Source: Psococerastis gibbosa (taxonomy: Eukaryota; Arthropoda; Insecta; Psocodea; Psocidae). Taken from it: DNA of 64,000 bases. Both the position numbers and the translations under genes were made by a program. Below the pieces are notes generated by a model. That model was not told where the DNA came from. It saw nothing but the letters and a program-made list of their open reading frames with translations, and searched no databases. Each line of letters starts with the position of its first letter. Within the stretch, counting starts at the first letter, position 1. This document shows positions 1 to 64,000 of this stretch, piece after piece. The DNA is taken from positions 868,001 to 932,000 of the forward strand of contig OZ020485.1 in assembly GCA_963971405.1 (NCBI GenBank), read 5' to 3'.

Positions 1-2162
1 GCTTATTTTGGCTCAATGTATTGTACTTAACATTGAGCAATTGCTCCTGCGTGTTCATCGGTGTAAATGTAGCTAAAAAAAATTCATTCGACAAGAATAA
101 GAAAAATAGCTATTTACTTATTTTATTTTTTTAAAGGTCTTAAAAAGATATAGGTGTCTTAATTTTGCTTGTTTAGGTACATTGTGTAGGACTTAACATT
201 GAACAATTGCTCCTGCGTGTTCATCGGTGTAAATGTAGCTACAAAAAATTCATTCGACAAGAATACGAAAAATAGCTATATACTTATTTTATTTTTTTTA
301 ATGGTCTTGAAATGATACGGGTGTCTCAATATTGCTTATTTTGACTCATTGTATTGTACTTAACATTGAGCAATTGCTCCTGTGTGTTCATCGGTTTAAA
401 TGTTGCTAAAAAAAATTCATTCGACAAGAATACGAAAAATAGCTCTATACTTATTTTATTTTTTTTAAAGGTCTTGATGTGACACGGGTGTCTTAATATG
501 GCTTATTTTTGCTCAGTGTATTGTAATTAACATTGAGCAATTGCTCCTGCGTGTTCATCGGTGTAAATGTAGCTAAAAAAAATTCATTCGACAAGTATAA
601 GAAAAATAGCTATTTACTTATTTTATTTTTTTAAAGGTTTTAAAAAGATAAAGGTGTCTTAATTTTGCTTATTTTGGCTCACTGTATTGTACTTGACATT
701 GAACAATTGCTCCTGCGTGTTCATCGGTTTAAATGTTGCTAAAAAAAATTCATTCGACAAGAATAAAAAAAATGGCTATTTACTTATTTTATTTTTTTTA
801 AAGGTCTTGATATGATAAGGGTGTCTTCATTTTGCTTATTTTGGCTCATGGTATTGTACTTAACATTGAACAATTGCTCCTGCGAGTTCATCGGTGTAAA
901 TGTAGCTAAAAAAAATTCATTCGACAAGAATAAGAAAAATAGCTATTTACTTATTTTATTTTTTTAAAGGTTTTAAAAAGATATAGGTGTCTTAATTTTG
1001 CTTATTTTGGCTCATTGTATTGTACTTGACATTGAACAATTGCTCCTGCGTGTTCATCGGTTTAAATGTTGCTAAAAAAAATTCATTCGACAAGAATAAA
1101 AAAAATGGCTATTTACTTATTTTATTTTTTTTAAAGGTCTTGATATGACAAGGGTGTCTTCATTTTGCTTATTTTGGCTCATTGTATTGAACTTAACATT
1201 GAGCAATTGCTCCTGCGTGTTCATCGGTAAATGTAGCTAAAAATAATTCATTCGACAAGAATAAGAAAAATAGCTATTTACTTATTTTATTTTTTTTAAA
1301 GGTTTTAAAAAGATATAGGTGTCTTTATTTTGCTTATTTTGGCTCAATGTATTGTACTTAACATTGAGCAATTGTTCCTGCGTGTTCATCGGTGTAAATG
1401 TAGCTAAAAAAAATTCATTCGACAAGAATAAGAAAAATAGCTATTTACTTATTTAATTTTTTGAAAGGTCTTAAAAAGATATAGGTGTCTTAATTTTGCT
1501 TATTTAGGCTCACTGTATTGTAATTAACTTTGAGCAATTGCTCCTGCGTGTTCATCGGTGTAAATGTGGCTAAAAAAAATTCATTCGACAAGAATATGAA
1601 AAATAGCTATTTACTTATTTTATTTTTTTTAAAGGTTTTAAAAAGATATAGGTGTCTTAATTTTGCTTATTTTGGCTCAATGTATTGTACTTAACATTGA
1701 GCAATTGTTCCTGCGTGTTCATCGGTGTAAATGTAGCTAAAAAAAATTCATTCGACAAGAATAAGAAAAATAGCTATTTACTTATTTTATTTTTTTAAAG
1801 GTCTTAAAAAGATATAGGTGTCTTAATTTTGCTTATTTTGGCTCAATGTATTGTACTTAACATTGAGCAATTGTTCTTGCGTGTTCATCGGTGTAAATGT
1901 AGCTAAAAAAAATTCATTCGACAAGAATAAGAAAAATAGCTATTTACTTATTTTATTTTTTTAAAGGTCTTAAAAAGATATAGGTGTCTTAATTTTGCTT
2001 ATTTAGGCTCATTGTATTGTACTTAACATTGGCCACTTGCTCCTGCGTGTTCATCGGTGTAAATGTTGCTAAAACAAATTCATTCGACAAGAATAAAAAA
2101 AATAGCTATTTACTTATTTTATTTTTTTTAAAGGTCTTGATATTATAAGTGTGTCTTAATTG
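1..2162. repeat. HOR-A copy 1: 13-monomer higher-order unit
   Basis: Monomer starts (GCTT) fall at 1, 167, 334, 501, 667, 834, 1000, 1167, 1332, 1498, 1665, 1831 and 1997, giving 13 monomers before the pattern restarts at 2163. The monomers differ from each other at many sites, but each matches its partner 2,162 bp downstream almost perfectly. One monomer (1167-1331) is 165 bp because it reads ATCGGTAAATG instead of ATCGGTGTAAATG. Monomers starting at 667 and 1000 are near copies of each other, so the unit itself contains an older two-monomer duplication. Confidence 0.93.
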
Positions 2163-4324
2163 GCTTATTTTGGCTCAATGTATTGTACTTAACATTGAGC
2201 AATTGCTCCTGCGTGTTCATCGGTGTAAATGTAGCTAAAAAAAATTCATTCGACAAGAATAAGAAAAATAGCTATTTACTTATTTTATTTTTTTAAAGGT
2301 CTTAAAAAGATATAGGTGTCTTAATTTTGCTTGTTTAGGTACACTGTGTAGGACTTAACATTGAACAATTGCTCCTGCGTGTTCATCGGTGTAAATGTAG
2401 CTACAAAAAATTCATTCGGCAAGAATACGATAATAGCTATATACTTATTTTATTTTTTTTAATGGTCTTGAAATGATACGGGTGTCTCAATATTGCTTAT
2501 TTTGACTCATTGTATTGTACTTAACATTGAGCAATTGCTCCTGTGTGTTCATCGGTTTAAATGTTGCTAAAAAAAATTCATTCGACAAGAATACGAAAAA
2601 TAGCTCTATACTTATTTTATTTTTTTTAAAGGTCTTGATGTGACACGGGTGTCTTAATATGGCTTATTTTTGCTCATTGTATTGTAATTAACATTGAGCA
2701 ATTGCTCCTGCGTGTTCATCGGTGTAAATGTAGCTAAAAAAAATTCATTCGACAAGTATAAGAAAAATAGCTATTTACTTATTTTATTTTTTTAAAGGTT
2801 TTAAAAAGATAAAGGTGTCTTAATTTTGCTTATTTTGGCTCATTGTATTGTACTTGACATTGAACAATTGCTCCTGCGTGTTCATCGGTTTAAATGTTGC
2901 TAAAAAAAATTCATTCGACAAGAATAAAAAAAATGGCTATTTACTTATTTTATTTTTTTTAAAGGTCTTGATATGATAAGGGTGTCTTCATTTTGCTTAT
3001 TTTGGCTCATGGTATTGTACTTAACATTGAACAATTGCTCCTGCGAGTTCATCGGTGTAAATGTAGCTAAAAAAAAATTCATTCGACAAGAATAAGAAAA
3101 ATAGCTATTTACTTATTTTATTTTTTTAAAGGTTTTAAAAAGATATAGGTGTCTTAATTTTGCTTATTTTGGCTCATTGTATTGTACTTGACATTGAACA
3201 ATTGCTCCTGCGTGTTCATCGGTTTAAATGTTGCTAAAAAAAATTCATTCGACAAGAATAAAAAAAATGGCTATTTACTTATTTTATTTTTTTTAAAGGT
3301 CTTGATATGACAAGGGTGTCTTCATTTTGCTTATTTTGGCTCATTGTATTGAACTTAACATTGAGCAATTGCTCCTGCGTGTTCATCGGTAAATGTAGCT
3401 AAAAATAATTCATTCGACAAGAATAAGAAAAATAGCTATTTACTTATTTTATTTTTTTTAAAGGTTTTAAAAAGATATAGGTGTCTTTATTTTGCTTATT
3501 TTGGCTCAATGTATTGTACTTAACATTGAGCAATTGTTCCTGCGTGTTCATCGGTGTAAATGTAGCTAAAAAAAATTCATTCGACAAGAATAAGAAAAAT
3601 AGCTATTTACTTATTTAATTTTTTGAAAGGTCTTAAAAAGATATAGGTGTCTTAATTTTGCTTATTTAGGCTCACTGTATTGTTATTAACTTTGAGCAAT
3701 TGCTCCTGCGTGTTCATCGGTGTAAATGTGGCTAAAAAAAATTCATTCGACAAGAATATGAAAAATAGCTATTTACTTATTTTATTTTTTTTAAAGGTTT
3801 TAAAAAGATATAGGTGTCTTAATTTTGCTTATTTTGGCTCAATGTATTGTACTTAACATTGAGCAATTGTTCCTGCGTGTTCATCGGTGTAAATGTAGCT
3901 AAAAAAAATTCATTCGACAAGAATAAGAAAAATAGCTATTTACTTATTTTATTTTTTTAAAGGTCTTAAAAAGATATAGGTGTCTTAATTTTGCTTATTT
4001 TGGCTCAATGTATTGTACTTAACATTGAGCAATTGTTCTTGCGTGTTCATCGGTGTAAATGTAGCTAAAAAAAATTCATTCGACAAGAATAAGAAAAATA
4101 GCTATTTACTTATTTTATTTTTTTAAAGGTCTTAAAAAGATATAGGTGTCTTAATTTTGCTTATTTAGGCTCATTGTATTGTACTTAACATTGGCCACTT
4201 GCTCCTGCGTGTTCATCGGTGTAAATGTTGCTAAAACAAATTCATTCGACAAGAATAAAAAAAATAGCTATTTACTTATTTTATTTTTTTTAAAGGTCTT
4301 GATATTATAAGTGTGTCTTAATTG
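2163..4324. repeat. HOR-A copy 2
   Basis: This repeats 1-2162 with only about eight differences that I can find by eye. Examples are GTACACTGTG for GTACATTGTG, CGATAATAGC for CGAAAAATAGC in the second monomer, a nine-A run at about 3065 where copy 1 has eight, and TTGTTATTAAC for TTGTAATTAAC near 3680. The two copies are therefore roughly 99.6% identical, which indicates a recent duplication. Confidence 0.93.
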
Positions 4325-4635
4325 GCTTATTTTGGCTCAATGTATTGTACTTAACATTGAGCAATTGCTCCTGCGTGTTCATCGGTGTAAATGTAGCTAA
4401 AAAAAATTCATTCGACAAGAATAAGAAAAATAGCTATTTACTTATTTTATTTTTTTAAAGGTCTTAAAAAGATATAGGTGTCTTAATTTTGCTTGTTTAG
4501 GTACACTGTGTAGGACTTAACATTGAACAATTGCTCCTGCGTGTTCATCGGTGTAAATGTAGCTACAAAAAATTCATTCGACAAGAATACGATAATAGCT
4601 ATATACTTATTTTATTTTTTTTAATGGTCTTGAAA
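4325..4635. repeat. HOR-A copy 3, truncated after about two monomers
   Basis: The unit restarts at 4325 and follows copies 1 and 2 through the monomer with GCTTGTTTAGGTAC. It shares the CGATAATAGC variant of copy 2 but keeps the CGACAAG of copy 1. At about 4,625-4,640 it leaves the A pattern: GATACGGGTGTCTCAATATT is replaced by GATATGGGTGTCTAAGTTTT, which is the B-type sequence seen near 8,635. This is the A/B domain junction. Confidence 0.85.
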
Positions 4636-4964: not shown

Positions 4965-7964
4965 AAAGATATAGGTGTCTTAATTTTGCTTATTTAGGCT
5001 CATTGTATTGTACTTAACATTGACCACTTGCTCCTGCGTGTTCATCGGTGTAAATGTTGCTACAAAAAATTCATTCGACAAGAATACGAAAAATAGCTCT
5101 ATACTTATTTTATTTTTTTAAAGGTCTTGATATGACACGGGTGTCTTAATTTGGCTTATTTTTGCTCATTGTATTGTAATTAACATTGAGCAATTGTTCC
5201 TGCGTGTTCATCGGTGTAAATGTAGCTAAAAAAAATTCATTCGACAAGAATAAGAAAAATAGCTATTTACTTATTTTATTTTTTTTAAAGGTCTTAAAAA
5301 GATATAGGTGTCTTAATTTTAATTATTTAGGCTCATTGTATTGTACTAAACATTGGCCACTTGCTCCTGCGTGATCATCGGTGTAAATGTTGCTAAAAAA
5401 AAATTCATTCGACAAGAATAAGAAAAATAGCTATTTACTTATTTTATTTTTTTAAATGTCTTAAAAAGATATAGGTGTCTTAATTTTGCTTGTTTAGGTA
5501 CATTGTGTAGGACTTAACATTGAACAATTGCTCCTGCGTGTTCATCGGTGTAAATGTAGCTACAAAAAATTCATTCGACAAGAATACGATAATAGCTATA
5601 TACTTATTTTATTTTTTTTAATGGTCTTGAAATGATACGGGTGTCTTAGTTTTGCTTATTTTGACTCACTGTATTGTACTTAACATTGAGCAATTGCTCC
5701 TGCGTGTTCATCGGAGTAAATGTAGCTAAACAAAATTCATTCGACAAGAATAAAAAAAATAGCTATTTACTTATTTTATTTTTTTTAAAGGTCTTAAAAA
5801 GATATAGGTGTCTAATTTTGCTTGTTTAGGCTCAATGTATTGTAGTTAACATTGAGCAGTTGCTCCTTCGTGTTCATCGGTGTAAATGTAGCTAAAAAAA
5901 ATTCATTCGACAAGAATACGAAAAATAGCTATATACTTATTTTATTTTTTTTAAAGGTCTTGAAATGATATGGGTGTCTTAATTTTGCTTATTTTGGCTC
6001 ATTGTATTGTACTTGACATTGAACAATTGCTCCTGCGTGTTCATCGGTTTAAATGTTGCTAAAAAAAATTCATTCGACAAGAAAAAAAAAATGGCTATTT
6101 ACTTATTTTATTTTTTTTAAAGGTCTTGATAAGATAAGGGTGTCTTCGTTTTGCTTATTTTGGCTCATTGTATTGTACTTAACATTGAGCAATTGCTCCT
6201 GCGAGTTCGTCGGTGTAAATGTAGCTAAAAAAAATTCATTCGACAAGAATAAGAAAAATAGCTATTTACTTATTTTATTTTTTTAAAGGTTTTAAAAAGA
6301 TATAGGTGCCTTAATTTTGCTTATTTTGGCTCAATGTATTGTACTTAACAGTGAGCAATTGTTCCTGCGTGTTCATCGGTGTAAATGTAGCTAAAAAAAA
6401 TTCATTCGACAAGAATAAGAAAAATAGCAATTTACTTATCTTATTTTTTTTAAATGTCTTTAAAAGATATAGGTGTCTTAATTTTGCTTATAAGGGCTTA
6501 CTGTATTGTATTTAACATTGGCCACTTGCTCCTGCGTGTTCATCGGTGTAAATGTAGCTACCAAAAATTCATTCGACAAGAATACGAAAAATAGCTATAT
6601 ACTTATTTTATTTTTTTTAAAGGTCTTGATATGACACGGGTGTCTTAATTTGGCTTATTTTGGCTCACTGTATTGTAGTTAACATTGAGCAATTGCTCCT
6701 GCGTGTTCATCGGTGTAAATGTAGCTAAAAAAAATTCATTCGACAAGAATAAAAAAAATGGCTATTTACTTATTTTATTTTTTTTAAAGGTCTTGATATG
6801 ATAAGGGTGTCTTCATTTTGCTTATTTTGGCTCATGGTATTGTACTTAACATTGAACAATTGCTCCTGCGAGTTCATCGGTGTAAATGTAGCTAAAAAAA
6901 ATTCATTCGACAAGAATAAGAAAAATAGCTATTTACTTATTTTATTTTTTTAAAGGTTTTAAAAAGATATAGGTGTCTTAATTTTGCTTATTTTGGCTCA
7001 TTGTATTGTACTTGACATTGAACAATTGCTCCTGCGTGTTCATCGGTTTAAATGTTGCTAAAAAAAATTCATTCGACAAGAATAAAAAAAATGGCTATTT
7101 ACTTATTTTATTTTTTTTAAAGGTCTTGATATGACAAGGGTGTCTTCATTTTGCTTATTTTGGCTCACTGTATTGTATTTAACATTGGCCACTTGCTCCT
7201 GCGTGTTCATCTGTGTAAATGTAGCTACCAAAAATTCATTCGACAAGAATACGAAAAATAGCTATATACTTATTTTATTTTTTTTAAAGGTCTTGATATG
7301 ACACGGGTGTCTTAATTTGGCTTATTTTGGCTCATTGTATTGTAATTAACATTGAGCAATAGCTCATGCGTGTTCATCGGTGTAAATGTAGCTAAAAAAA
7401 ATTCATTCGACAAGAATAAGAAAAATAGCTATTTACTTATTTTATTTTTTTAAAGGTTTTAAAAAGATATAGGTGTCTTAATTTTGCTTATATTGGCTCA
7501 CTGTATTATACTTGACATTGAACAATTGCTCCTGCGTGTTCATCGGTGTAAATGTAGCTAAAAAAAATTCATTCGACAAGAATAAGAAAAATTGCTTTTT
7601 ACTTATATTATTTTTTTTAAAGGTCTTAAAAAGATATAGGTGTCTTAATTTTGCTTATTTAGGCTCACTGTATTGTACTTAACATTGGCCACTTGCTCCT
7701 GCGTGTTCATCGGTGTAAATGTAGCTAAAAAAAATTCATTCGACAAGAATAAGAAAAATAGCTATTTACTTATTTTATTTTTTTTAAAGGTTTTAAAAAG
7801 ATATAGGTGTCTTTATTTTGCTTATTTTGGCTCAATGTATTGTACTTAACATTGAGCAATTGTCCCTGCGTGTTCATCGGTGTAAATGTAGCTAAAAAAA
7901 ATTCATTCGACAAGAATAAGAAAAATAGCTATTTATTTATTTTATTTTTTTTAAAGGTCTTAAA
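4965..7964. repeat. HOR-B copy 1: 18-monomer unit of about 3.0 kb
   Basis: Markers in this block recur 2,999 bp later: the GACCACTTGCTCC monomer at about 4,988 and 7,988, the GCTTGTTTAGGTACATTG monomer at 5,488 and 8,487, and the short-tract monomer with AAGAAAAAAAAAATGGC at about 6,080 and 9,079. The match to copy 2 stops near 6,745. The rest of the block (about 6,745-7,160) instead copies HOR-A monomers found at about 2,930-3,310, and after 7,133 it becomes HOR-C sequence. B is therefore a composite unit. Confidence 0.85.
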
Positions 7965-9744
7965 AAGATATAGGTGTCTTAATTTTGCTTATTTAGGCTC
8001 ATTGTATTGTACTAAACATTGACCACTTGCTCCTGCGTGTTCATCGGTGTAAATGTTGCTACAAAAAATTCATTCGACAAGAATACGAAAAATAGCTCTA
8101 TACTTATTTTATTTTTTTAAAGGTCTTGATATGACACGGGTGTCTTAATTTGGCTTATTTTTGCTCATTGTATTGTAATTAACATTGAGCAATTGTTCCT
8201 GCGTGTTCATCGGTGTAAATGTAGCTAAAAAAAATTCATTCGACAAGAATAAGAAAAATAGCTATTTACTTATTTTATTTTTTTTGAAGGTCTTAAAAAG
8301 ATATAGGTGTCTTAATTTTAATTATTTAGGCTCATTGTATTGTACTTAACATTGGCCACTTGCTCCTGCGTGATCATCGGTGTAAATGTTGCTAAAAAAA
8401 AATTCATTCGACAAGAATAAGAAAAATAGCTATTTACTTATTTTATTTTTTTAAATGTCTTAAAAAGATATAGGTGTCTTAATTTTGCTTGTTTAGGTAC
8501 ATTGTGTAGGACTTAACATTGAACAATTGCTCCTGCGTGTTCATCGGTGTAAATGTAGCTACAAAAAATTCATTCGACAAGAATACGATAATAGCTATAT
8601 ACTTATTTTATTTTTTTTAATGGTCTTGAAATGATATGGGTGTCTTAGTTTTGCTTATTTTGACTCACTGTATTGTACTTAACATTGAGCAATTGCTCCT
8701 GCGTGTTCATCGGAGTAAATGTAGCTAAACAAAATTCATTCGACAAGAATAAAAAAAATAGCTATTTACTTATTTTATTTTTTTTAAAGGTCTTAAAAAG
8801 ATATAGGTGTCTAATTTTGCTAGTTTAGGCTCAATGTATTGTAATTAACATTGAGCAATTGCTCCTGCGTGTTCATCGGTGTAAATGTAGCTAAAAAAAA
8901 TTCATTCGACAAGAATACGAAAAATAGCTATATACTTATTTTATTTTTTTTAAAGGTCTTGAAATGATATGGGTGTCTTAATTTTGCTTATTTTGGCTCA
9001 TTGTATTGTACTTGACATTGAACAATTGCTCCTGCGTGTTCATCGGTTTAAATGTTGCTAAAAAAAATTCATTCGACAAGAAAAAAAAAATGGCTATTTA
9101 CTTATTTTATTTTTTTTAAAGGTCTTGATAAGATAAGGGTGTCTTCATTTTGCTTATTTTGGCTCATTGTATTGTACTTAACATTGAGCAATTGCTCCTG
9201 CGAGTTCGTCGGTGTAAATGTAGCTAAAAAAAATTCATTCGACAAGAATAAGAAAAATAGCTATTTACTTATTTTATTTTTTTAAAGGTTTTAAAAAGAT
9301 ATAGGTGCCTTAATTTTGCTTATTTTGGCTCAATGTATTGTACTTAACAGTGAGCAATTGTTCCTGCGTGTTCATCGGTGTAAATGTAGCTAAAAAAAAT
9401 TCATTCGACAAGAATAAGAAAAATAGCAATTTACTTATTTTATTTTTTTTAAATGTCTTTAAAAGATATAGTCGTCTTAATTTTGCTTATAAGGGCTTAC
9501 TGTATTGTATTTAACATTAGCCACTTGCTCCTGCGTGTTCATCGGTGTAAATGTAGCTACCAAAAATTCATTCGACAAGAATACGAAAAATAGCTATATA
9601 CTTATTTTATTTTTTTTAAAGGTCTTGATATGACACGGGTGTCTTAATTTGGCTTATTTTGGCTCACTGTATTGTAGTTAACATTGAGCAATTGCTCCTG
9701 CGTGTTCATCGGTGTAAATGTAGCTAAAAAAAATTCATTCGACA
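7965..9744. repeat. HOR-B copy 2, partial
   Basis: This follows copy 1 at an offset of 2,999 bp with scattered substitutions, for example GATATGGGTGTCTTAG for GATACGGGTGTCTTAG near 8,635. It diverges at about 9,745, where the sequence reads GAAAAAGAAAAATAGC instead of AATAAAAAAAATGGC. It lies inside the first copy of the larger HOR-C unit, so the B duplication predates the C duplication. Confidence 0.85.
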
Positions 9745-24875: not shown

Positions 24876-24932
24876 CTGCGTGTTCATCGGTGTAAATGTA
24901 GCTAAAAAAAATTCATTCGACAAGAATAAGAA

Positions 24933-24944: not shown

Positions 24945-24995
24945 ACTTATTTTATTTTTTTAAAGGTCTTAAAAAGATATAGGTGTCTTAATTTT

Positions 24996-39740: not shown

Positions 39741-39744
39741 AAAA

Positions 39745-51400: not shown

Positions 51401-54400
51401 TAGCTACAAAAAATTCATTCGACAAGAATAAGAAAAATAGCTATATACTTATTTTATTTTTTTTAAAGGTCTTGATATGACACGGGTGTCTTAATTTTGC
51501 TTATTTTGGCTCATTATATAGTACTGAACATTGAGCAATTGCTCCTGCGTGTTCATCGGTGTAAATGTAGCTAAAAAAAATTAATTCGACAAGAATAAGA
51601 AAAATAGCTATTTACTTATTTAATTTTTTTAAAGGTCTTAAAAAGATATAGGTGTCTTAATTTTCCTTGTTTAGGTACATTGTGTAGTACTTAACATTGA
51701 GCAATTGCTACTGCGTGTTCATCGGTGTAAATGTAGCTAAAAAAAATTCATTCGACAAGAATAAGAAAAATAGCTATTTACTTATTTTATTTTTTTTAAA
51801 GGTTTAAAAAAGATATAGGTGTCTCAATTTTGCTTATTTTGGCTCAATGTATTGTACTGAACATTGAGCAATTGCTCCTGCGTGTTCATCGGTGTAAATG
51901 TAGCTAAAAAAAATTCATTCGACAAGAATAAGAAAAATAGCTATTTACTTTTTTTATTTTTTAAAGGTCTTAAAAAGATATAGGTGTCATAATTTTCCTT
52001 GTTTAGGTACATTGTGTAGTACTTAACATTGAGCAATTGCTACTGCTTGTTCATCGGTGTAAATGTAGCTACAAAAAATTCATTCGACAAGAATACGAAA
52101 AATAGCTCTATACTTATTTTATTTTTTTTAAAGGTCTTGATATGACCCGGTTGTCTTAATTGGGCTTATTTTTGCTCATTGTATTGTAATTAACATTGAG
52201 CAATTGCTCCTGCGTGTTCATCGGTGTAAATGTAGCTAAAAAAAATTCATTCGACAAGAATAAGAAAAATAGCTATTTACTTTTTTTTTTTTTAAAGGTC
52301 TTTAAAAGATATAGGTGTCTTAATTTTGCTTATTTTGGCTCAATGTATTGTATTTAATATTGAGCAATTGCTCCTGCGTGTTCATCGGTGTAAATGTAGC
52401 TTAAAAAAATTCATACGGCAAGAATACGAAAAATAGCTATTTAATTATTTTATTTTTTTTAAAGGTCTTGATATGACCCGGGTGTCTTAATTTGGCTTAT
52501 TTTTGCTCATTGTATTGTAATTAACATTAAACAATTGCTCCTGCGTGTTCATCGGTGTAAATGTAGCTAAAAAAAATTCATTCGACAAGAATAAGAAAAA
52601 TAGCTATTTACTTCTTTTTTTTTTAAAGGTCTTTAAAAGATATAGGTGTCTTAATTTTGCTTATTTTGGCTCACTGTACTGTATCTAACATTAAGCAATT
52701 GCTCCAGCGTGTTCATCGGTGTAAATGTAGCTACAAAAAATTCATTCGATAAGAATACGAAAAATAGCTATATACTTATTTTTTTTTTTTTAAAGGTCTT
52801 CATATGACATGAGTGTCTTAATTTTGCTTATTTTGGGCTCAATGTATTGTTCTTAACATTGAGCAATTGCTCCTGCGTGTTCATCGGTGTAAATGTAGCT
52901 AAAAAAAATTCATTCGACAAGAATAAGAAAAATAGCTATTTACTTATTTTATTTTTTTTAAAGGTTTAAAAAAGATATAGGTGTCTTAATTTTGCTTATT
53001 TTGGCTCATTGTATTGTACTTAACATTGAGCAATTGCTCCTGCGTGTTCATCGGTGTAAATGAAGCTAAAAAAAATTCATTCGACAAGAATAAGAAAAAT
53101 AGCTATTTACTTATTTTATTTTTTTTAAAGGTCCTAAAAAGATATAGGTGCGTTAATTTTGCTTATTTATGCTCATTGTATTGTACTTAACATTGACCAG
53201 TTGCTCGTGCGTGTTCATCGGTGTAAATGTAGCTACAAAAAATTCATTCGACAAGAATAAGAAAAATAGCTATTTACTTATTTTATTTTTTTTAAAGGTT
53301 TAAAAAAGATATAGGTGTCTCAATTTTGCTTATTTTGGCTCAATGTATTGTACTTAACATTGACCAGTTGCTCGTGCGTGTTCGTCGGTGTAAATGTAGC
53401 TACAAAAAATTCATTCGACAAGAATAAGAAAAATAGCTATATACTTATTTTATTTTTTTTAAAGGTCTTGATATGACACGGGTGTCTTAATTTTGCTTAT
53501 TTTGGCTCACTGTATTGTACTGAACATTGAGCAATTGCTCCTGCGTGTTCATCGGTGTAAATGTAGCTAAAAAAAATTCATTCGACAAGAAAAAGGAAAA
53601 TAGCTATTTACTTATTTTATTTTTTTAAAGGTCTTAAAAAGATATAGGTGTCATAATTTTCCTTGTTTAGGTATATTGTGTAGTACTTAACATTGAGCAA
53701 TTGCTACTGCGTGTTCATCGGTGTAAATGTAGCTAAAAAAAATTCATTCGACAAGAATAAGAAAAATAGCTATTTACTTATTTTATTTTTTTTAAAGGTT
53801 TTAAAAAGATATAGGTGTCCTAATTTTGCTTATTTTGGCTCATTGTATTGTACTTAACATTGAGCAATTGCTCCTGCGTGTTCATCGGTGTAAATGTAGC
53901 TAAAAAAAATTCATTCGACAAGAATAAGAAAAATAGCTATTTACTTATTTTATTTTTTTAAAGGTTTTAACAAGATATAGGTGTCTTAATTTTGCTTGTT
54001 TAGGTACATTGTGTAGGACATAACATTGAACAATTGCTCCTGCGTGTTCATCGGTGTAAATGTAGCTACAAAAAATTCATTCGACAAGAATACGATAATA
54101 GCTATATACTTATTTTATTTTTTTTAAAGGTCTTAAAAAGATATAGGTGTCTAATTTTGCTTGTTTAGGCTCACTGTATTGTACTAAACATTGACCGATT
54201 GCTCCTGCGTGTTCATCGGTATAAATGTAGCTACAAAAAATTCATTCGACAAGAATACAAAAAATAGATATATACTTATTTTTTTTTTTAAAGGTCTTGA
54301 TATGACATGAGTGTCTTAATTTTGCTTATTTTGGCTCATTGTATTGTACTTAACATTGAGCAATTGCTCCTGCGTGTTCATCGGTGTAAATGTAGCTAAA

Positions 54401-54970
54401 AAAAATTCATTCGACAAGAATAAGAAAAATAGCTATTTACTTCTTTTTTTTTAAAGGTCTTTAAAAGATATAGGTGTCTTAATTTTGCTTATTTTGGCTC
54501 AATGTATTGTATTTAATATTGAGCAATTGCTCCGGCGTGTTCATCGGTGTAAATGTAGCTTAAAAAAATTCATACGGCAAGAATACGAAAAATAGCTATT
54601 TACTTATATTATTTTTTTTAAAGGTTTTGAAAAGATATGGGTGTCTTTATATTGCTTATTTTGGCTCACTGTACTGTATCTAACATTAAGCAATTGCTCC
54701 AGCTTGTTCATCGGTGTAAATGTAGCTACAAAAAATTCATTCGACAAGAATACGAAAAATAGCTATATACTTATTTTTTTTTTTTAAAGGTCTTCATATG
54801 ACATGACTGTCTTAATTTTGCTTATGTTGGGCTCATTGTATTGTACTTAACATTGAGCAATTGCTCCTGCGTGTTCATCGGTGTAAATGTAGCTAAAAAA
54901 AATTCATTCGACAAGAATAAGAAAAATAGATATTTACTTATTTTATTTTTTTTAAAGGTCTTAAAAAGAT
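51401..54970. repeat. Divergent G segment 1
   Basis: These monomers have no near-identical partner in the first 51 kb. Private features include GGTCTTCATATGACATG, TTATTTTGGGCTC, TGCTACTGCGTG, CTGTACTGTATCTAACATTAAG, TACTTTTTTTATTTTTTAAAGG, and short tracts reading TACTTCTTTTTTTTTTAAAGG. Some monomers carry broken core blocks (TTCATACGGCAAGAATA near 52,410 and 54,570). The greater private variation suggests an older or less homogenised part of the array. There is nothing but satellite here. Confidence 0.8.
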
Positions 54971-56255
54971 ATAGGTGTCTTAATTTTGCTTATATTGGCT
55001 CACTGTATTATACTTGACATTGAGCAATTGCTCCTGCGTGTTCATCGGTGTAAATGTAGCTAAAAAAAATTCATTCGACAAGAATAAGAAAAATAGATAT
55101 TTACTTATTTTATTTTTTTTAAAGGTCTTAAAAAGATACAGGTGTCCTAATTTTGCTTATTTGGGCTCACTGTATTGTACTTAACATTGGCCACTTGCTC
55201 CTGCGTGTTCATCGGTGTAAATGTAGCTACAAAAAATTCATTCGACAAGAATACGAAAAATAGCTATATACTTATTTTATTTTTTTTAAAGGTCTTGATA
55301 TCACACGGGTGTCTTAATTTGGCTTATATAGGCTCATTGTATTGTAATTAACATTGTGCAATTGCTCCTGCGTGTTCGTCGGTGTAAATGTGGCTAAAAA
55401 AAATTCATTCGACAAGAATAAGAAAAATAGCTATTTACTTATTTTATTTTTTTTAAAGGTTTTAAAAAGATGTAGGTGTCTTAATTTTGCTTATTTTGGC
55501 TCAATGTATTGTACTTAACATCGAGCAGTTGTTCCTGCGTGTTCATCGGTGTAAATGTAGCTAAAAAAAATTCATTCGACAAGAATAAGAAAAATAGCTA
55601 TTTACTTATTTTATTTTTTTTAAAGGTCTTAAAAAGATATAGGTGTCTTAATTTTGCTTATTTAGGCTCATTGTATTGTACTTAACATTGGCCACTTGCT
55701 CCTGCGTGTTCATCGGTGTAAATGTTGCTAAAAAAAAATTCATTCGACAAGAATAAAAAAAATAGCTATTTACTTATTTTATTTTTTTTAAAGGTCTTGA
55801 TATGATAAGGGTGTCTTAATTTGGCTTATTGTGGCTCATTGTATTGTACTTAACATTGAGCAATTGCTCCTGCGTGTTCATCGGTGTAAATGTAGCTAAA
55901 AAAAATTCATTCGACAAGAATAAGAAAAATAGCTATTTACTTATTTTATTTTTTTAAAGGTCTTAAAAAGATATAGGTGTCTTAATTTAGCTTGTTTACG
56001 TACATTGTGTAGGACTTAACATTCAACAATTGCTCCTGCGTGTTCATCGGTGTAAATGTAGCTACAAAAAATTCATTCGACAAGAATACGATAATAGCTA
56101 TATACTTATTTTTTTTTTTTAATGGTCTTGAAATGATATGGGTGTCTTAGTTTTGCTTATTTTGACTCACTGTATTGTACTGAACATTGAGCAATTGCTC
56201 CTGCGTGTTCATCGGAGTAAATGTAGCTAAACAAAATTCATTCGACAAGAATAAG
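54971..56255. repeat. HOR-F partial copy 3
   Basis: From TATATTGGCTCACTG this follows 49,150-50,430 at an offset of 5,822 bp, with the markers GATACAGGTGTCCTAATTTT, GATATCACACGGG, ATCGAGCAGTTG and TTTAGCTTGTTTACG. It ends at about 56,255, where the expected GAAAAACAGC reads GAAAAATAGC and G-type sequence (GGTCCTAAAAAGATATAGG) follows. Confidence 0.83.
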
Positions 56256-58115
56256 AAAAATAGCTATTTACTTATTTTATTTTTTTTAAAGGTCCTAAAA
56301 AGATATAGGTGCGTTAATTTTGCTTATTTATGCTCATTGTATTGTACTTAACATTGACCAGTTGCTCGTGCGTGTTCATCGGTGTAAATGTAGCTACAAA
56401 AAATTCATTCGACAAGAATAAGAAAAATAGCTATTTACTTATTTTATTTTTTTTAAAGGTTTAAAAAAGATATAGGTGTCTCAATTTTGCTTATTTTGGC
56501 TCAATGTATTGTACTTAACATTGACCAGTTGCTCGTGCGTGTTCGTCGGTGTAAATGTAGCTACAAAAAATTCATTCGACAAGAATAAGAAAAATAGCTA
56601 TATACTTATTTTATTTTTTTTAAAGGTCTTGATATGACACGGGTGTCTTAATTTTGCTTATTTTGGCTCACTGTATTGTACTGAACATTGAGCAATTGCT
56701 CCTGCGTGTTCATCGGTGTAAATGTAGCTAAAAAAAATTCATTCGACAAGAAAAAGGAAAATAGCTATTTACTTATTTTATTTTTTTAAAGGTCTTAAAA
56801 AGATATAGGTGTCATAATTTTCCTTGTTTAGGTACATTGTGTAGTACTTAACATTGAGCAATTGCTACTGCGTGTTCATCGGTGTAAATGTAGCTAAAAA
56901 AAATTCATTCGACAAGAATAAGAAAAATAGCTATTTACTTATTTTATTTTTTTTAAAGGTTTTAAAAAGATATAGGTGTCCTAATTTTGCTTATTTTGGC
57001 TCATTGTATTGTACTTAACATTGAGCAATTGCTCCTGCGTGTTCATCGGTGTAAATGTAGCTAAAAAAAATTCATTCGACAAGAATAAGAAAAATAGCTA
57101 TTTACTTATTTTATTTTTTTAAAGGTTTTAACAAGATATAGGTGTCTTAATTTTGCTTGTTTAGGTACATTGTGTAGGACATAACATTGAACAATTGCTC
57201 CTGCGTGTTCATCGGTGTAAATGTAGCTACAAAAAATTCATTCGACAAGAATACGATAATAGCTATATACTTATTTTATTTTTTTTAAAGGTCTTAAAAA
57301 GATATAGGTGTCTAATTTTGCTTGTTTAGGCTCACTGTATTGTACTAAACATTGACCGATTGCTCCTGCGTGTTCATCGGTGTAAATGTAGCTACAAAAA
57401 ATTCATTCGACAAGAATACAAAAAATAGATATATACTTATTTTTTTTTTTAAAGGTCTTGATATGACATGAGTGTCTTAATTTTGCTTATTTTGGCTCAT
57501 TGTATTGTACTTAACATTGAGCAATTGCTCCTGCGTGTTCATCGGTGTAAATGTAGCTAAAAAAAATTCATTCGACAAGAATAAGAAAAATAGCTATTTA
57601 CTTCTTTTTTTTTAAAGGTCTTTAAAAGATATAGGTGTCTTAATTTTGCTTATTTTGGCTCAATGTATTGTATTTAATATTGAGCAATTGCTCCGGCGTG
57701 TTCATCGGTGTAAATGTAGCTTAAAAAAATTCATACGGCAAGAATACGAAAAATAGCTATTTACTTATTTTATTTTTTTTAAAGGTTTTGAAAAGATATG
57801 GGTGTCTTTATATTGCTTATTTTGGCTCACTGTACTGTATCTAACATTAAGCAATTGCTCCAGCTTGTTCATCGGTGTAAATGTAGCTACAAAAAATTCA
57901 TTCGACAAGAATACGAAAAATAGCTATATACTTATTTTTTTTTTTTAAAGGTCTTCATATGACATGACTGTCTTAATTTTGCTTATGTTGGGCTCATTGT
58001 ATTGTACTTAACATTGAGCAATTGCTCCTGCGTGTTCATCGGTGTAAATGTAGCTAAAAAAAATTCATTCGACAAGAATAAGAAAAATAGATATTTACTT
58101 ATTTTATTTTTTTTA
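56256..58115. repeat. Divergent G segment 2
   Basis: This repeats about 53,100-54,960 at an offset of 3,161 bp (19 monomers). Examples are GGTCCTAAAAAG at 53,131 and 56,292, and GTACTGTATC at 54,671 and 57,832. Differences are few, such as GTATAAATG at about 54,220 against GTGTAAATG. Confidence 0.83.
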
Positions 58116-58129
58116 AAGGTCTTAAAAAG

Positions 58130-58424
58130 ATGTAGGTGTCTTAATTTTGCTTATTTTGGCTCAATGTATTGTACTTAACATCGAGCAGTTGTTCCTGCGT
58201 GTTCATCGGTGTAAATGTAGCTAAAAAAAATTCATTCGACAAGAATAAGAAAAATAGCTATTTACTTATTTTATTTTTTTTAAAGGTCTTAAAAAGATAT
58301 AGGTGTCTTAATTTTGCTTATTTAGGCTCATTGTATTGTACTTAACATTGGCCACTTGCTCCTGCGTGTTCATCGGTGTAAATGTTGCTAAAAAAAAATT
58401 CATTCGACAAGAATAAAAAAAATA
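58130..58424. repeat. Two-monomer replacement tract
   Basis: The equivalent positions in the neighbouring unit (60,790-61,087) hold the TATATTGGCTCACTG and TTTGGGCTCACTG monomers. Here they are replaced, without a change in monomer number, by a GATGTAGG / ATCGAGCAGTTG monomer and a GTTGCTAAAAAAAAATTC monomer. Both are the same as the monomers at about 58,630-58,920. The end of the tract is a hybrid (AATAAAAAAAATAGC joined to TATATAC). This fits gene conversion, or a paired duplication and deletion. Confidence 0.78.
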
Positions 58425-60195
58425 GCTATATACTTATTTTATTTTTTTTAAAGGTCTTGATATCACACGGGTGTCTTAATTTGGCTTATATAGGCTCATT
58501 GTATTGTAATTAACATTGTGCAATTGCTCCTGCGTGTTCGTCGGTGTAAATGTGGCTAAAAAAAATTCATTCGACAAGAATAAGAAAAATAGCTATTTAC
58601 TTATTTTATTTTTTTTAAAGGTTTTAAAAAGATGTAGGTGTCTTAATTTTGCTTATTTTGGCTCAATGTATTGTACTTAACATCGAGCAGTTGTTCCTGC
58701 GTGTTCATCGGTGTAAATGTAGCTAAAAAAAATTCATTCGACAAGAATAAGAAAAATAGCTATTTACTTATTTTATTTTTTTTAAAGGTCTTAAAAAGAT
58801 ATAGGTGTCTTAATTTTGCTTATTTAGGCTCATTGTATTGTACTTAACATTGGCCACTTGCTCCTGCGTGTTCATCGGTGTAAATGTTGCTAAAAAAAAA
58901 TTCATTCGACAAGAATAAAAAAAATAGCTATTTACTTATTTTATTTTTTTTAAAGGTCTTGATATGATAAGGGTGTCTTAATTTGGCTTATTGTGGCTCA
59001 TTGTATTGTACTTAACATTGAGCAATTGCTCCTGCGTGTTCATCGGTGTAAATGTAGCTAAAAAAAATTCATTCGACAAGAATAAGAAAAATAGCTATTT
59101 ACTTATTTTATTTTTTTAAAGGTCTTAAAAAGATATAGGTGTCTTAATTTAGCTTGTTTACGTACATTGTGTAGGACTTAACATTCAACAATTGCTCCTG
59201 CGTGTTCATCGGTGTAAATGTAGCTACAAAAAATTCATTCGACAAGAATACGATAATAGCTATATACTTATTTTTTTTTTTTAATGGTCTTGAAATGATA
59301 TGGGTGTCTTAGTTTTGCTTATTTTGACTCACTGTATTGTACTGAACATTGAGCAATTGCTCCTGCGTGTTCATCGGAGTAAATGTAGCTAAACAAAATT
59401 CATTCGACAAGAATAAGAAAAACAGCTATTTACTTATTTTATTTTTTTAAAGGTTTTAAAAAGATAAAGGTGTCTTAATTTTGCTTATTTTGGCTCATTG
59501 TATTGTACTGGACATTGAGAAATTGCTCGTGCGTGTTCAACGGTTTAAATGTTGCTAAAAAAAATTCATTCGACAAGAATAAAAAAAATTGCTATTTACT
59601 TATTTTATTTTTTTAAAGGTCTTGATATGATCAGGGTGTCTTAATTTGGCTTATTTTGGCTCATTGTATTGTACTTAACATTGAGCAATTGCTCCTGCGT
59701 GTTCATCGGTGTAAATGTAGCTAAAAAAAATTCATTCGACAAGAATAAGAAAAATAGATATTTACTTATTTTATTTTTTTAAAGGTCTTAAAAAGATATA
59801 GGTGTCGTTATTTTGCTTATTTTGGCTCAATGTATTGTACTTAACATTGAGCGATTGTTCCTGCGTGTTCATCGGTGTAAATGTAGCTAAAAAAAATTCA
59901 TTCGACAAGAATAAGAAAAATAGCTATTTACTTATTTTATTTTTTTTAAAGGTCTTAAAAAGATATAGGTGTCTTAATTTTGCTTATTTAGGCTCATTGT
60001 ATTGTACTTAACATTGGCCACTTGCTCCTGCGTGTCCATCGGTGTAAATGTAGCTACAAAAAATTCATTCGACAAGAATACGAAAAATAGCTATATACTT
60101 ATTTTATTTTTTTTAAAGGTCTTGATATGACACGGGTGTCTTAATTTGGCTTATTTTTGCTCATTGTATTGTAATTAACATTGAGCAATTGCTCC
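58425..60195. repeat. HOR-F partial copy 4
   Basis: It matches 49,440-51,210 at an offset of 8,984 bp, including GATATCACACGGG at 58,459 and the GTGTCGTTATTTTGC monomer (open frame start at 59,802, matching 50,818). It ends at about 60,195, where TTGCTCCTGCG and a TACTTCTTTTTTTTTAAAGG tract of G type follow instead of TTGTTCCTGCG. Confidence 0.83.
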
Positions 60196-60775
60196 TGCGT
60201 GTTCATCGGTGTAAATGTAGCTAAAAAAAATTCATTCGACAAGAATAAGAAAAATAGCTATTTACTTCTTTTTTTTTAAAGGTCTTTAAAAGATATAGGT
60301 GTCTTAATTTTGCTTATTTTGGCTCAATGTATTGTATTTAATATTGAGCAATTGCTCCGGCGTGTTCATCGGTGTAAATGTAGCTTAAAAAAATTCATAC
60401 GGCAAGAATACGAAAAATAGCTATTTACTTATTTTATTTTTTTTAAAGGTTTTGAAAAGATATGGGTGTCTTTATATTGCTTATTTTGGCTCACTGTACT
60501 GTATCTAACATTAAGCAATTGCTCCAGCTTGTTCATCGGTGTAAATGTAGCTACAAAAAATTCATTCGACAAGAATACGAAAAATAGCTATATACTTATT
60601 TTTTTTTTTTAAAGGTCTTCATATGACATGACTGTCTTAATTTTGCTTATGTTGGGCTCATTGTATTGTACTTAACATTGAGCAATTGCTCCTGCGTGTT
60701 CATCGGTGTAAATGTAGCTAAAAAAAATTCATTCGACAAGAATAAGAAAAATAGATATTTACTTATTTTATTTTT
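60196..60775. repeat. Divergent G segment 3 (short)
   Basis: About 3.5 monomers match 57,530-58,115 at an offset of 2,664 bp, including the broken TTCATACGGCAAG core and the CTGTACTGTATCTAAC monomer. The stretch 57,530-60,195 plus its repeat from here to about 62,860 forms a 16-monomer (2.66 kb) tandem pair. Confidence 0.82.
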
Positions 60776-63045
60776 TTTAAAGGTCTTAAAAAGATATAGG
60801 TGTCTTAATTTTGCTTATATTGGCTCACTGTATTATACTTGACATTGAGCAATTGCTCCTGCGTGTTCATCGGTGTAAATGTAGCTAAAAAAAATTCATT
60901 CGACAAGAATAAGAAAAATAGATATTTACTTATTTTATTTTTTTTAAAGGTCTTAAAAAGATACAGGTGTCCTAATTTTGCTTATTTGGGCTCACTGTAT
61001 TGTACTTAACATTGGCCACTTGCTCCTGCGTGTTCATCGGTGTAAATGTAGCTACAAAAAATTCATTCGACAAGAATACGAAAAATAGCTATATACTTAT
61101 TTTATTTTTTTTAAAGGTCTTGATATCACACGGGTGTCTTAATTTGGCTTATATAGGCTCATTGTATTGTAATTAACATTGTGCAATTGCTCCTGCGTGT
61201 TCGTCGGTGTAAATGTGGCTAAAAAAAATTCATTCGACAAGAATAAGAAAAATAGCTATTTACTTATTTTATTTTTTTTAAAGGTTTTAAAAAGATGTAG
61301 GTGTCTTAATTTTGCTTATTTTGGCTCAATGTATTGTACTTAACATCGAGCAGTTGTTCCTGCGTGTTCATCGGTGTAAATGTAGCTAAAAAAAATTCAT
61401 TCGACAAGAATAAGAAAAATAGCTATTTACTTATTTTATTTTTTTTAAAGGTCTTAAAAAGATATAGGTGTCTTAATTTTGCTTATTTAGGCTCATTGTA
61501 TTGTACTTAACATTGGCCACTTGCTCCTGCGTGTTCATCGGTGTAAATGTTGCTAAAAAAAAATTCATTCGACAAGAATAAAAAAAATAGCTATTTACTT
61601 ATTTTATTTTTTTTAAAGGTCTTGATATGATAAGGGTGTCTTAATTTGGCTTATTGTGGCTCATTGTATTGTACTTAACATTGAGCAATTGCTCCTGCGT
61701 GTTCATCGGTGTAAATGTAGCTAAAAAAAATTCATTCGACAAGAATAAGAAAAATAGCTATTTACTTATTTTATTTTTTTAAAGGTCTTAAAAAGATATA
61801 GGTGTCTTAATTTAGCTTGTTTACGTACATTGTGTAGGACTTAACATTCAACAATTGCTCCTGCGTGTTCATCGGTGTAAATGTAGCTACAAAAAATTCA
61901 TTCGACAAGAATACGATAATAGCTATATACTTATTTTTTTTTTTTAATGGTCTTGAAATGATATGGGTGTCTTAGTTTTGCTTATTTTGACTCACTGTAT
62001 TGTACTGAACATTGAGCAATTGCTCCTGCGTGTTCATCGGAGTAAATGTAGCTAAACAAAATTCATTCGACAAGAATAAGAAAAACAGCTATTTACTTAT
62101 TTTATTTTTTTAAAGGTTTTAAAAAGATAAAGGTGTCTTAATTTTGCTTATTTTGGCTCATGTATTGTACTTGACATTGAGAAATTGCTCGTGCGTGTTC
62201 AACGGTTTAAATGTTGCTAAAAAAAATTCATTCGACAAGAATAAAAAAAATTGCTATTTACTTATTTTATTTTTTTAAAGGTCTTGATATGATCAGGGTG
62301 TCTTAATTTGGCTTATTTTGGCTCATTGTATTGTACTTAACATTGAGCAATTGCTCCTGCGTGTTCATCGGTGTAAATGTAGCTAAAAAAAATTCATTCG
62401 ACAAGAATAAGAAAAATAGATATTTACTTATTTTATTTTTTTAAAGGTCTTAAAAAGATATAGGTGTCGTTATTTTGCTTATTTTGGCTCAATGTATTGT
62501 ACTTAACATTGAGCGATTGTTCCTGCGTGTTCATCGGTGTAAATGTAGCTAAAAAAAATTCATTCGACAAGAATAAGAAAAATAGCTATTTACTTATTTT
62601 ATTTTTTTTAAAGGTCTTAAAAAGATATAGGTGTCTTAATTTTGCTTATTTAGGCTCATTGTATTGTACTTAACATTGGCCACTTGCTCCTGCGTGTCCA
62701 TCGGTGTAAATGTAGCTACAAAAAATTCATTCGACAAGAATACGAAAAATAGCTATATACTTATTTTATTTTTTTTAAAGGTCTTGATATGACACGGGTG
62801 TCTTAATTTGGCTTATTTTTGCTCATTGTATTGTAATTAACATTGAGCAATTGTTCCTGCGTGTTCATCGGTGTAAATGTAGCTAAAAAAAATTCATTCG
62901 ACAAGAATAAGAAAAATAGCTATTTACTTATTTTATTTTTTTTAAAGGTTTAGAAAAGATATAGGTGTCTTAATTTTGCTTATTTTGGCTCATTGTATTG
63001 TACTAAACATTGACCAGTTGCTCGTGCGTGTTCATCGGTGTAAAT
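60776..63045. repeat. HOR-F partial copy 5
   Basis: It matches 49,140-51,400 at an offset of 11,646-11,647 bp (61,122 with 49,475; 62,464 with 50,818). It also matches copy 4 at 2,662-2,663 bp. One base is missing in GGCTCATGTATTG near 62,160, where copy 2 reads GGCTCATTGTATTG. Confidence 0.85.
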
Positions 63046-64000
63046 GTAGCTACAAAAAATTCATTCGACAAGAATAAGAAAAATAGCTATATACTTATTT
63101 TATTTTTTTTAAAGGTCTTGATATGACACGGGTGTCTTAATTTTGCTTATTTTGGCTCATTATATTGTACTGAACATTGAGCAATTGCTCCTGCGTGTTC
63201 ATCGGTGTAAATGTAGCTAAAAAAAATTAATTCGACAAGAATAAGAAAAATAGCTATTTACTTATTTAATTTTTTTAAAGGTCTTAAAAAGATATAGGTG
63301 TCTTAATTTTCCTTGTTTAGGTACACTGTGTAGTACTTAACATTGAGCAATTGCTACTGCGTGTTCATCGGTGTAAATGTAGCTAAAAAAAATTCATTCG
63401 ACAAGAATAAGAAAAATAGCTATTTACTTATTTTATTTTTTTTAAAGGTTTAAAAAAGATATAGGTGTCTCAATTTTGCTTATTTTGGCTCAATGTATTG
63501 TACTTAACATTGTGCAATTGTTCCTGCGTGTTCATCGGTGTAAATGTAGCTAAAAAAAATTCATTCGACAAGAATAAGAAAAATAGCTATTTACTTATTT
63601 TATTTTTTTTAAAGGTCCTTAAAAGATATAGGTGTGTTAATTTTGCTTATTTATGCTCATTGTATTGTACTTAACATTGACCAGTTGCTCGTGCGTGTTC
63701 ATCGGTGTAAATGTAGCTACAAAAAATTCATTCGACAAGAATAAGAAAAATAGCTATATGCTAATTTTATTTTTTTTAAAGGTCTTGATATGACACGGGT
63801 GTCTTAATTTTGCTTATTTTGGCTAATTGTATTGTACTGAACATTGAGCAATTGCTCCTGCGTGTTCATCGGTGTAAATGTAGCTAAAAAAAATTCATTC
63901 GACAAGAATAAGAAAAATAGCTATTTACTTTTTTTATTTTTTAAAGGTCTTAAAAAGATATAGGTGTCATAATTTTCCTTGTTTAGGTACATTGTGTAGT
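63046..64000. repeat. Divergent G segment 4, running off the window
   Basis: It repeats the start of G segment 1 (51,401-52,020) at an offset of 11,646 bp and then, after two extra monomers at about 63,540-63,870, of 11,980 bp. Shared markers are CATTATAT, CCTTGTTTAGGTAC, AATTAATTCGAC and TACTTTTTTTATTTTTTAAAGG. The array continues beyond the window. Confidence 0.83.

What the first reader, a model, noticed from the sequence alone, without database searches (positions are those of the whole stretch)
1..64000. Multi-level higher-order repeat architecture in a 64-kb satellite window
Several nested periods coexist: 1 monomer (166-167 bp), 8-mer (1.34 kb), 13-mer (2.16 kb), 16-17-mer (2.66-2.83 kb), 18-mer (3.0 kb), 19-mer (3.16 kb), 38-mer (6.3 kb), 52-mer (8.67 kb) and 70-79-mer (11.5-13.2 kb). 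Larger units contain smaller ones, so the array grew by repeated tandem duplication of ever larger blocks. HORs are classically described for primate alpha satellite; a non-alpha example of this depth is worth describing.
Basis: seen in the sequence. Interest (0 to 1): 0.72.

Follow-up and report, generated by a model that had tools for sequence, protein, structure and literature searches.

The report
Nested duplications in chromosome-end satellite
The window is part of a long, possibly centromeric, tandem repeat at the end of a chromosome scaffold of what looks like an arthropod, and it grew by many overlapping block duplications of different sizes, a known kind of repeat evolution seen here with unusually clear footprints.

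Summary
The 64 kb are 384 head-to-tail copies of a 166/167-bp monomer. Near-identical multi-monomer blocks far exceed chance: 90 runs of 3 or more monomers at 98% against 0.3 in shuffled order. Periods 13, 16, 18, 19 and 38 and several between 69 and 79 are real; the 52-mer is a true tandem duplication eroded to 51 and 50. The 8- and 17-mer are weak. No period dominates, and blocks recur irregularly, so this is a mosaic of block duplications, not an iterated alpha-satellite-type HOR. "Ever larger blocks" is not supported: the 52-mer duplication looks younger than the 77-mer. Beyond the window, parts of it recur 186-216 kb away at 99.3-99.9% identity. Some junction monomers are exact hybrids, footprints of in-register exchange. 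The window lies near the satellite end of a 52.6-Mb scaffold whose other end is (TTAGG)n; the family makes up roughly 3.5% of the 409-Mb assembly. Best reading: a (peri)centromeric satellite evolving mainly by unequal exchange. HORs outside primates are already published as widespread. The least expected feature is two monomer types that differ mainly in an 11-bp box, one of which avoids itself as neighbour.

The parts
1..64000 (+). satellite array, 384 monomers of 166/167 bp, all on the + strand
   Evidence: no complete ORF of 100 aa or more, no tRNA, no Rfam match
39..4528 (+). 13-mer (2.16 kb) tandem duplication, about two copies, 99.7% identical
5026..9689 (+). 18-mer (3.0 kb) duplication, 5026-6690 against 8025-9689, 99.3%
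7024..19697 (+). 38-mer (6.3 kb) near-tandem duplication, second copy from about 13362/13529, tail eroded (offsets 38, 39, 33)
16028..22867 (+). 23/24-mer duplication, 16028-18863 against 19865-22867, spacer of 6 monomers
17697..34702 (+). 52-mer (8.67 kb) tandem duplication without spacer: A 17697-26366, B 26367-34702 (offsets 52, 51, 50 after one deletion in B and one insertion in A)
26867..51369 (+). 77-mer (12.8 kb) tandem duplication without spacer: 26867-39701 (77 monomers) and 39702-51369 (70 monomers; a 10-monomer deletion in this copy, three single-monomer losses in the other)
32371..37535 (+). 16/17-mer (2.67 kb) duplication, inferred older than the 77-mer because an eroded remnant (offset 7) is seen in the second 77-mer copy
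53032..62848 (+). 19-mer and 16-mer tandem duplications (strictly tandem at 95%)
27201..27366 (+). hybrid monomer 163: left part of monomer 111 (18531), right part of monomer 112 (18698); 21 of 21 informative sites fit one switch (7 left, 14 right); single-monomer deletion in copy B
46204..46371 (+). hybrid monomer 277: left part of monomer 198, right part of monomer 208; 18 of 18 informative sites fit one switch (15 left, 3 right); 10-monomer deletion
21035..21367 (+). monomers 126-127: insertion in copy A of a monomer-length tract (like 128|129 or 104|105, one mismatch) into a monomer whose uninterrupted form is at 29538-29703 and 42540-42705

Best explanation
This is a stretch of a long, probably centromeric or pericentromeric, AT-rich satellite of an arthropod. 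It evolves mainly by in-register homologous exchange between misaligned copies, on sister chromatids or homologues. Exchange misaligned by k monomers gives a tandem duplication or deletion of k monomers; here k is broad (13 to 77 for the duplications seen in the window, 1 and 10 for deletions, and a further level of about 200 kb on the scaffold). At least one short two-switch event inserted a single monomer-length tract. Successive overlapping events, each eroding earlier ones, give nested periods with irregular spacing and no dominant period. Shown by sequence: block duplications, spacer-free tandem units, hybrid junction monomers, scaffold-end position. Inferred: the order 16-mer, then 77-mer, then 52-mer; that exchange rather than replication slippage is the main mechanism; that the array is centromeric; that the host is an arthropod.
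For: Block excess over shuffles. Gapped self-alignment and chaining give spacer-free tandem units. Deletions read as hybrid monomers with one clean switch: 163 (21 sites), 277 (18 sites), 138 = 188 (11 sites, only 2 on the left) and 213 (11 sites, only 1 on the left, weak). Outgroup polarity. Simulated random in-register duplication/deletion with broad sizes (uniform 1-80 or 13-80; 12 runs each) gives median 80 and 78 blocks, 4 and 2 of them below offset 13 (observed 90 and 1). Log-uniform 1-80 gives 132 and 17; small steps (geometric, mean 3) give 81% of blocks below offset 13 at coverage 0.45. C2 starts in this satellite and ends in (TTAGG)n, as do C13, C14 and C20. 18 of 18 10-kb stretches sampled from C2:1-1.21 Mb are this array on the + strand. 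79,843 exact copies of the 19-bp core in the genome, control 0.
Against: The broad simulations give more strictly tandem runs (median 5) and longer runs (64 and 54) than observed (1 and 30). The 126/127 insert needs two switches, which one crossover does not give. The window shares blocks with C2 1.07-1.105 Mb but none with 960-970 kb, which a purely local process does not predict. Of ten large scaffolds, four start in the satellite; the examined ends of C1, C3 and C15 have none, C12 and C19 start in N, C21 starts without it, and chromosome interiors were not examined. No centromere-protein data. Assembly error in such an array cannot be excluded from sequence alone.
Confidence: 0.72

Rival explanations
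1. True alpha-satellite-type HOR array: one n-mer unit iterated many times, with the listed periods as multiples or variants of it.
For: Monomers about 90% alike while blocks are 99-100% alike. By runs of 5 or more monomers, 346 of 383 monomers occur in 2 to 7 places. At about 1.07-1.09 Mb on C2 the first 6.7 kb of the window recur about three times, spaced 6.8 and 8.3 kb.
Against: No dominant offset: the best nearest-partner offset holds 48 of 363 monomers. Only the 13-mer is strictly tandem at 98%, with about two copies; the 16- and 19-mer join it at 95%.
Confidence: 0.1
2. Copy-paste amplification (break-induced replication with template switching, or conversion) rather than crossover makes most blocks.
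For: Blocks shared with C2 1.07-1.105 Mb but not with 960-970 kb. The 126/127 insert needs two switches. A review describes BIR as an alternative to unequal exchange at centromeres (PMC8122249, passage); new human HORs are interspersed among old ones and implicate more than simple unequal crossover (PMC11062924, passages).
Against: The two largest duplications in the window are tandem with zero spacer and collinear; four of the five indels examined read as single-switch hybrids, two of them strongly. BIR can also give tandem products, so the two readings overlap.
Confidence: 0.17
3. Assembly artefact: misjoined or falsely duplicated reads in a repeat.
For: Blocks up to 99.96% identical over 30 monomers; small scaffolds that start in this satellite suggest that the assembler struggled here.
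Against: Copies carry private substitutions and private single-monomer indels; a graded series of divergences exists.
Confidence: 0.08

Closest known systems
Arabidopsis CEN178-type block-duplication HORs as defined by TRASH (PMC10199239, passages seen)
   Same: Pairs of blocks of 3 or more monomers with few differences, not one iterated unit; 150 such pairs here against 3.07 in shuffles
Primate alpha-satellite HOR
   Same: About 170-bp AT-rich monomers; two monomer types distinguished mainly at one short box and tending to alternate; blocks far more alike than monomers. Human alternation of the CENP-B box and about 70% monomer identity: passages of PMC8122249
   Different: No iterated unit, no CENP-B box, (TTAGG)n telomere, monomers about 90% alike. 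No alpha-satellite sequence was compared
Meloidogyne satDNA HORs with CENP-B-box-like motif (PMC3694981, passages seen)
   Same: About 170-bp monomers, HORs, conserved short box, recombination as proposed mechanism
   Different: There, divergent monomers (down to 32% identity) in a HOR; here one family at about 90%
Varecia Vv166/Vr166 lemur centromere satellite (PMC13228423, passages seen)
   Same: 166-bp monomer, HOR configurations from 1 to 35 monomers
   Different: 42% GC there against 29% here; host is a primate; sequences not compared

Membership tests
satellite with block-duplication HORs (TRASH definition) | paired blocks of 3 or more monomers with at most 5 differences per monomer | tested here: met
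   150 pairs, mean 3.07 and maximum 9 in 100 shuffles; 363 of 383 monomers involved
alpha-satellite-type HOR array | one n-mer unit iterated head to tail many times | tested here: not met
   in the window strictly tandem at 98%: only the 13-mer, about two copies; the rest of the array was only sampled
alpha-satellite-type HOR array | units much more alike than the monomers inside them | tested here: met
   mean monomer identity 0.90; longer blocks 0.99-1.00
CENP-B-box satellite | all nine essential bases TTCGNNNNANNCGGG (consensus recalled) | tested here: not met
   63 matches, each with 2 mismatches, none with 0 or 1. This exceeds the shuffles (mean 39.3, maximum 55, 0 of 100 reach 63), but 62 of the 63 are copies of one position of the monomer, so the excess is no independent support
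centromeric satellite | dominant large array at one site per chromosome | tested here: inconclusive
   present in all 18 stretches sampled over 1.21 Mb at the C2 end; 4 of 10 large scaffolds start in it; other ends lacked it, read N or were not seen; interiors not examined
centromeric satellite | binds CENP-A or another kinetochore protein | not testable with these tools
   needs ChIP or CUT&RUN

The most novel reading that the evidence does not exclude
An arthropod satellite has converged on the alpha-satellite plan. Two monomer types, a (TTAAAAAGATATAGG) and b (TTGATATGACACGGG and variants), differ mainly in one 11-bp box and tend to alternate because a sequence-specific protein binds one type, and selection or exchange keeps type b from abutting itself across the whole array.
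Probability: 0.12. Interest if true: 0.65.

Novelty: new member of a known kind. Interest (0 to 1): 0.33.

Why it matters
Satellite growth is seldom readable event by event. Here tandem units, hybrid junction monomers and single-monomer gains and losses can be read directly, and part of the event order inferred, so models of satellite growth (crossover against break-induced copying) become testable on a concrete array. The a/b box rule gives a concrete candidate binding site.

Tried and rejected
Rejected: one dominant HOR period. Rejected: small-step duplication as the main process, by simulation. Rejected: CENP-B box. Considered and dropped: a general minimum duplication size of about 13 monomers. 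It holds in the window at 98% (1 of 90 blocks below offset 13), but in other stretches of the array offsets of 1, 3, 7 and 8 monomers are among the commonest. Considered and reversed: I first read hybrid 177 = 255 as a deletion shared by B and B'. Older copies 64 and 103 have the same uninterrupted form, so A carries an insertion. Also reversed on checking: I had read monomers 266 and 282 of the second 77-mer copy as inserted copies of distant monomers. Their neighbours in older copies show that they are retained, and that the other copies lost them: 138/188 reads as 266|267 and 213 as 282|283. This weakens the copy-paste rival, whose odds I lowered from 0.20 to 0.17. Also corrected there: shorter blocks recur in up to seven places, not two or three.

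Rows 148-157 compare paralogues of the 16-mer duplication and were left out of the 33 triples, as were 106-112 and 126-127. Odd-length monomers (outside 155-180 bp) were dropped.

Led nowhere: first anchor scan (skipped copies); exact 22-bp core pattern in viral contigs and genome contigs (no match) and blastn of window 1-1000 against plasmids (no match); six sequence strings from the monomer in the paper library (none); searches for 166/167-bp satellite papers gave nothing that could be tied to this sequence; passages on the fire-ant CenSol satellite (PMC5024525) hold no 'higher order' or 'higher-order'. Species not identified. A BLAST run gave almost nothing, probably through its settings, and was replaced. 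The histone search found histone-fold genes; no CENP-A candidate was followed.
Full report
What is there. The window is one uninterrupted satellite array. TRF finds period 167 with 384 copies from 1 to 63995. Cutting at a conserved anchor gives 383 full monomers, of which 214 are 167 bp and 126 are 166 bp. G+C is 28-29% throughout. There is no complete ORF of 100 aa or more, no tRNA and no Rfam match at gathering score. Mean pairwise monomer identity is 0.90.

Is the multi-level structure real? Yes. At 98% identity there are 90 runs of 3 or more consecutive monomer pairs, against a mean of 0.3 in 200 shuffles of monomer order. The longest run is 30 monomers, against 3 in shuffles, and 92% of monomers lie in such a block. 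At 97% the counts are 144 against 2.3, at 95% 348 against 49 (100 shuffles). By the published TRASH definition (blocks of 3 or more monomers, at most 5 differences each; PMC10199239, passages) there are 150 pairs against 3.07, involving 363 of 383 monomers.

Which periods? 13, 16, 18, 19, 38, 69, 70, 71, 74, 78 and 79 have runs of 3 or more at 98%; 72, 73 and 75-77 have none. Exact 52 has one run of 5. 8 and 17 appear only at 97%, in runs of 4 and 3. Indels explain them. Chaining gives monomers 106-157 followed without spacer by 158-207, with offset drifting 52, 51, 50: a 52-mer tandem duplication, 17697-26366 and 26367-34702. Likewise monomers 161-237 are followed without spacer by 238-307, with offsets 77, 78, 79, 69, 70: a 77-mer duplication, 26867-39701 and 39702-51369. 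129 is 51 plus 78. Strictly tandem at 98% is only the 13-mer; at 95% the 16-mer and 19-mer join it. Blocks are not all two-copy: by runs of 5 or more monomers, 37 of 383 monomers are single, 81 occur twice, 54 three times, 106 four, 81 five, 23 six and 1 seven times. Spacing is irregular, and no unit is iterated many times inside the window.

How the pieces were made. Several junctions show exchange inside monomers. Monomer 163 of copy B is the left part of 111 and the right part of 112; 21 of 21 informative sites fit one switch, and older copies 78/79 keep both monomers. Monomer 277 is 198 left and 208 right, 18 of 18 (15 left, 3 right), and the next monomer equals 209: a ten-monomer deletion. 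Monomers 138 and 188 read as 266 left and 267 right, 11 of 11 but only 2 sites on the left; 213 reads as 282|283, 11 of 11 but only 1 on the left. Monomers 126 and 127 of copy A flank an inserted monomer-length tract. The uninterrupted form is identical in 64, 103, 177 and 255, and the insert resembles 128|129 or 104|105 with one mismatch. Crossover explains the deletions and the large tandem units; the insert needs two switches.

Order of events (inferred). The 16/17-mer duplication precedes the 77-mer, because a remnant at offset 7 is present in the second 77-mer copy after the ten-monomer deletion. In 33 orthologous triples (5,503 bp) of A, B and B', 12 sites are unique to B', 2 to A and 1 to B. 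At three of the B' sites older copies carry the B' state, so A and B share derived changes; two of these are the shared hybrid 138 = 188. No site unites B and B'. Five of the 12 lie in one monomer and may be one event. The 52-mer duplication is therefore probably the younger. Across 61 blocks of 4 or more monomers, offset is not negatively related to divergence (Spearman +0.22, p 0.09; blocks are not independent). 'Ever larger blocks' is not supported.

Simulation (12 runs each). Random in-register duplication and deletion with sizes uniform on 1-80 or 13-80 gives median 80 and 78 blocks, 4 and 2 of them below offset 13; observed are 90 and 1. Log-uniform 1-80 gives 132 and 17. Small steps (geometric, mean 3) give 81% below offset 13 at coverage 0.45. 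Against the broad models: they give more strictly tandem runs (5 against 1) and longer runs (64 and 54 against 30) than observed.

Surroundings. The window is G000:C2:868001-932000 of a 409,210,807-bp assembly in 68 contigs. C2 is 52,571,483 bp. It begins inside the satellite and ends in (TTAGG)n; C13, C14 and C20 do likewise. C3 has telomere repeat at both ends, C1 at its end only; C12 and C19 start in N; the starts of C1, C15 and C21 and the ends of C12 and C15 show neither satellite nor clean telomere repeat; the ends of C19 and C21 were not seen. (TTAGG)n is the usual arthropod telomere (recalled), so the host is very probably an arthropod; the species is unknown. 18 of 18 10-kb stretches from C2:1-1.21 Mb are 97.9-99.7% satellite on the + strand (180 kb seen). 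At 1.40 Mb the array meets other sequence, including a retroelement with reverse transcriptase (PF00078, 3.6e-24). The exact 19-bp core occurs 36,803 times forward and 43,040 reverse, control 0. The window holds 354, so by proportion the family is about 14 Mb, or 3.5% of the assembly. Ten scaffolds of 12 Mb or more were seen among the 33 contigs looked at, 404 Mb together.

Beyond the window. The share of monomers lying in 98% blocks of 3 or more shared with the window is 93% at C2 1.08-1.09 Mb, 100% at 1.095-1.105 Mb, 52% at 932-942 kb, 41% at 1.12-1.13 Mb, 45-55% at 100-110 and 190-210 kb, and 0 at 1-10, 50-60, 150-160, 400-410 and 960-970 kb and 1.40 Mb; six other stretches lie between 5 and 22%. 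Window 1-2478, 3070-6749, 18041-21109, 27263-31441 and 31377-35567 have matches between 1.077 and 1.104 Mb at offsets of 200-216 kb and 99.7-99.9% identity, in the same broad order; some map to overlapping places because they are paralogues of each other. Other long runs there lie at offsets of 186-211 kb and 99.3-99.9%. So a further, larger level exists; its extent was not mapped. At 1.07-1.09 Mb the first 6.7 kb of the window recur about three times, spaced 6.8 and 8.3 kb. Coverage by runs of 500 bp or more in the eight joined stretches is 0.96, 1.0, 0.39, 0.72, 0.67, 0.56, 0.33 and 0.20.

Two monomer types. Neighbours are less alike than chance (0.888 against 0.902, z -9.6). Two Ward clusters differ at ten columns by more than 0.5 in frequency; six lie in columns 109-119 of 173. 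That box holds the most variable 12-column window (column-permutation p 0.003), while the 22 columns from 41 (around AAATTCATTCGACAAGAAT) are the most conserved (0 of 2000 permutations), both on 101 monomers made non-redundant at 98%. Type b next to type b: 14 against 53.8 in 2000 permutations (minimum 40); 32 of 383 monomers are of neither type. On distinct junctions: 6 of 153, Fisher p 2.8e-6 on the 120 that are a or b on both sides. In 19 other stretches of C2: 66 against 159 expected over 1013 junctions, below expectation in 19 of 19 (stretches share sequence, so they are not independent). Type b resembles the 3' half of the CENP-B box, but no place in the window has fewer than two mismatches to the nine essential bases. 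An inverted repeat (GCTCAATGT ... ACATTGAGC) has arms with at least 8 of 9 pairs in 41% of 101 monomers against 1.8% of shuffles.

Comparison with what is known. HORs outside primates are established: 76 of 171 species with Sanger data (PMC4053949, passages); nematode HORs (PMC3694981, passages); lemur 166-bp satellites with HOR lengths up to 35 (PMC13228423, passages). New human HORs spread by saltatory, interspersed changes (PMC11062924, passages). This array is a new member of a known kind. Of the nine paper searches, only looked for the sequence itself and found none; most subscription papers are not in that library.

Noticed in passing
window, alignment columns 109-119 of the monomer (type b for example at 474-488): Two monomer types differing mainly in an 11-bp box; type b avoids itself as neighbour in the window and in 19 of 19 other stretches of C2.
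   Followed up: partly
L041 (G000:C14:1-1000), about 600-640: Satellite orientation flips within 1 kb at the start of C14; in Tribolium such flips form macro-dyad symmetries (PMC13081366, passages).
   Followed up: no
window 11-38 and the same place in other monomers: Inverted repeat with 9-bp arms and 10-base loop, above shuffled expectation.
   Followed up: partly
G000:C2:1070001-1105000 (L069, L023, L024): Near-identical matches to much of the window 186-216 kb away, while 960-970 kb shares no 98% block of 3 monomers.
   Followed up: partly
L009, L010, L014, L015, L017, L018, L019: Odd monomers of 104, 184, 196, 198 and 260 bp occur elsewhere in the array but not in the window.
   Followed up: no
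L027 1876-3408 (G000:C2 about 1.402-1.403 Mb): Retroelement ORF with reverse transcriptase and weak aspartyl-protease matches near the array edge.
   Followed up: no
G000:C19:8506-74303: Cluster of histone-fold genes, four with equal scores, near the start of C19, whose first 1 kb reads N.
   Followed up: no
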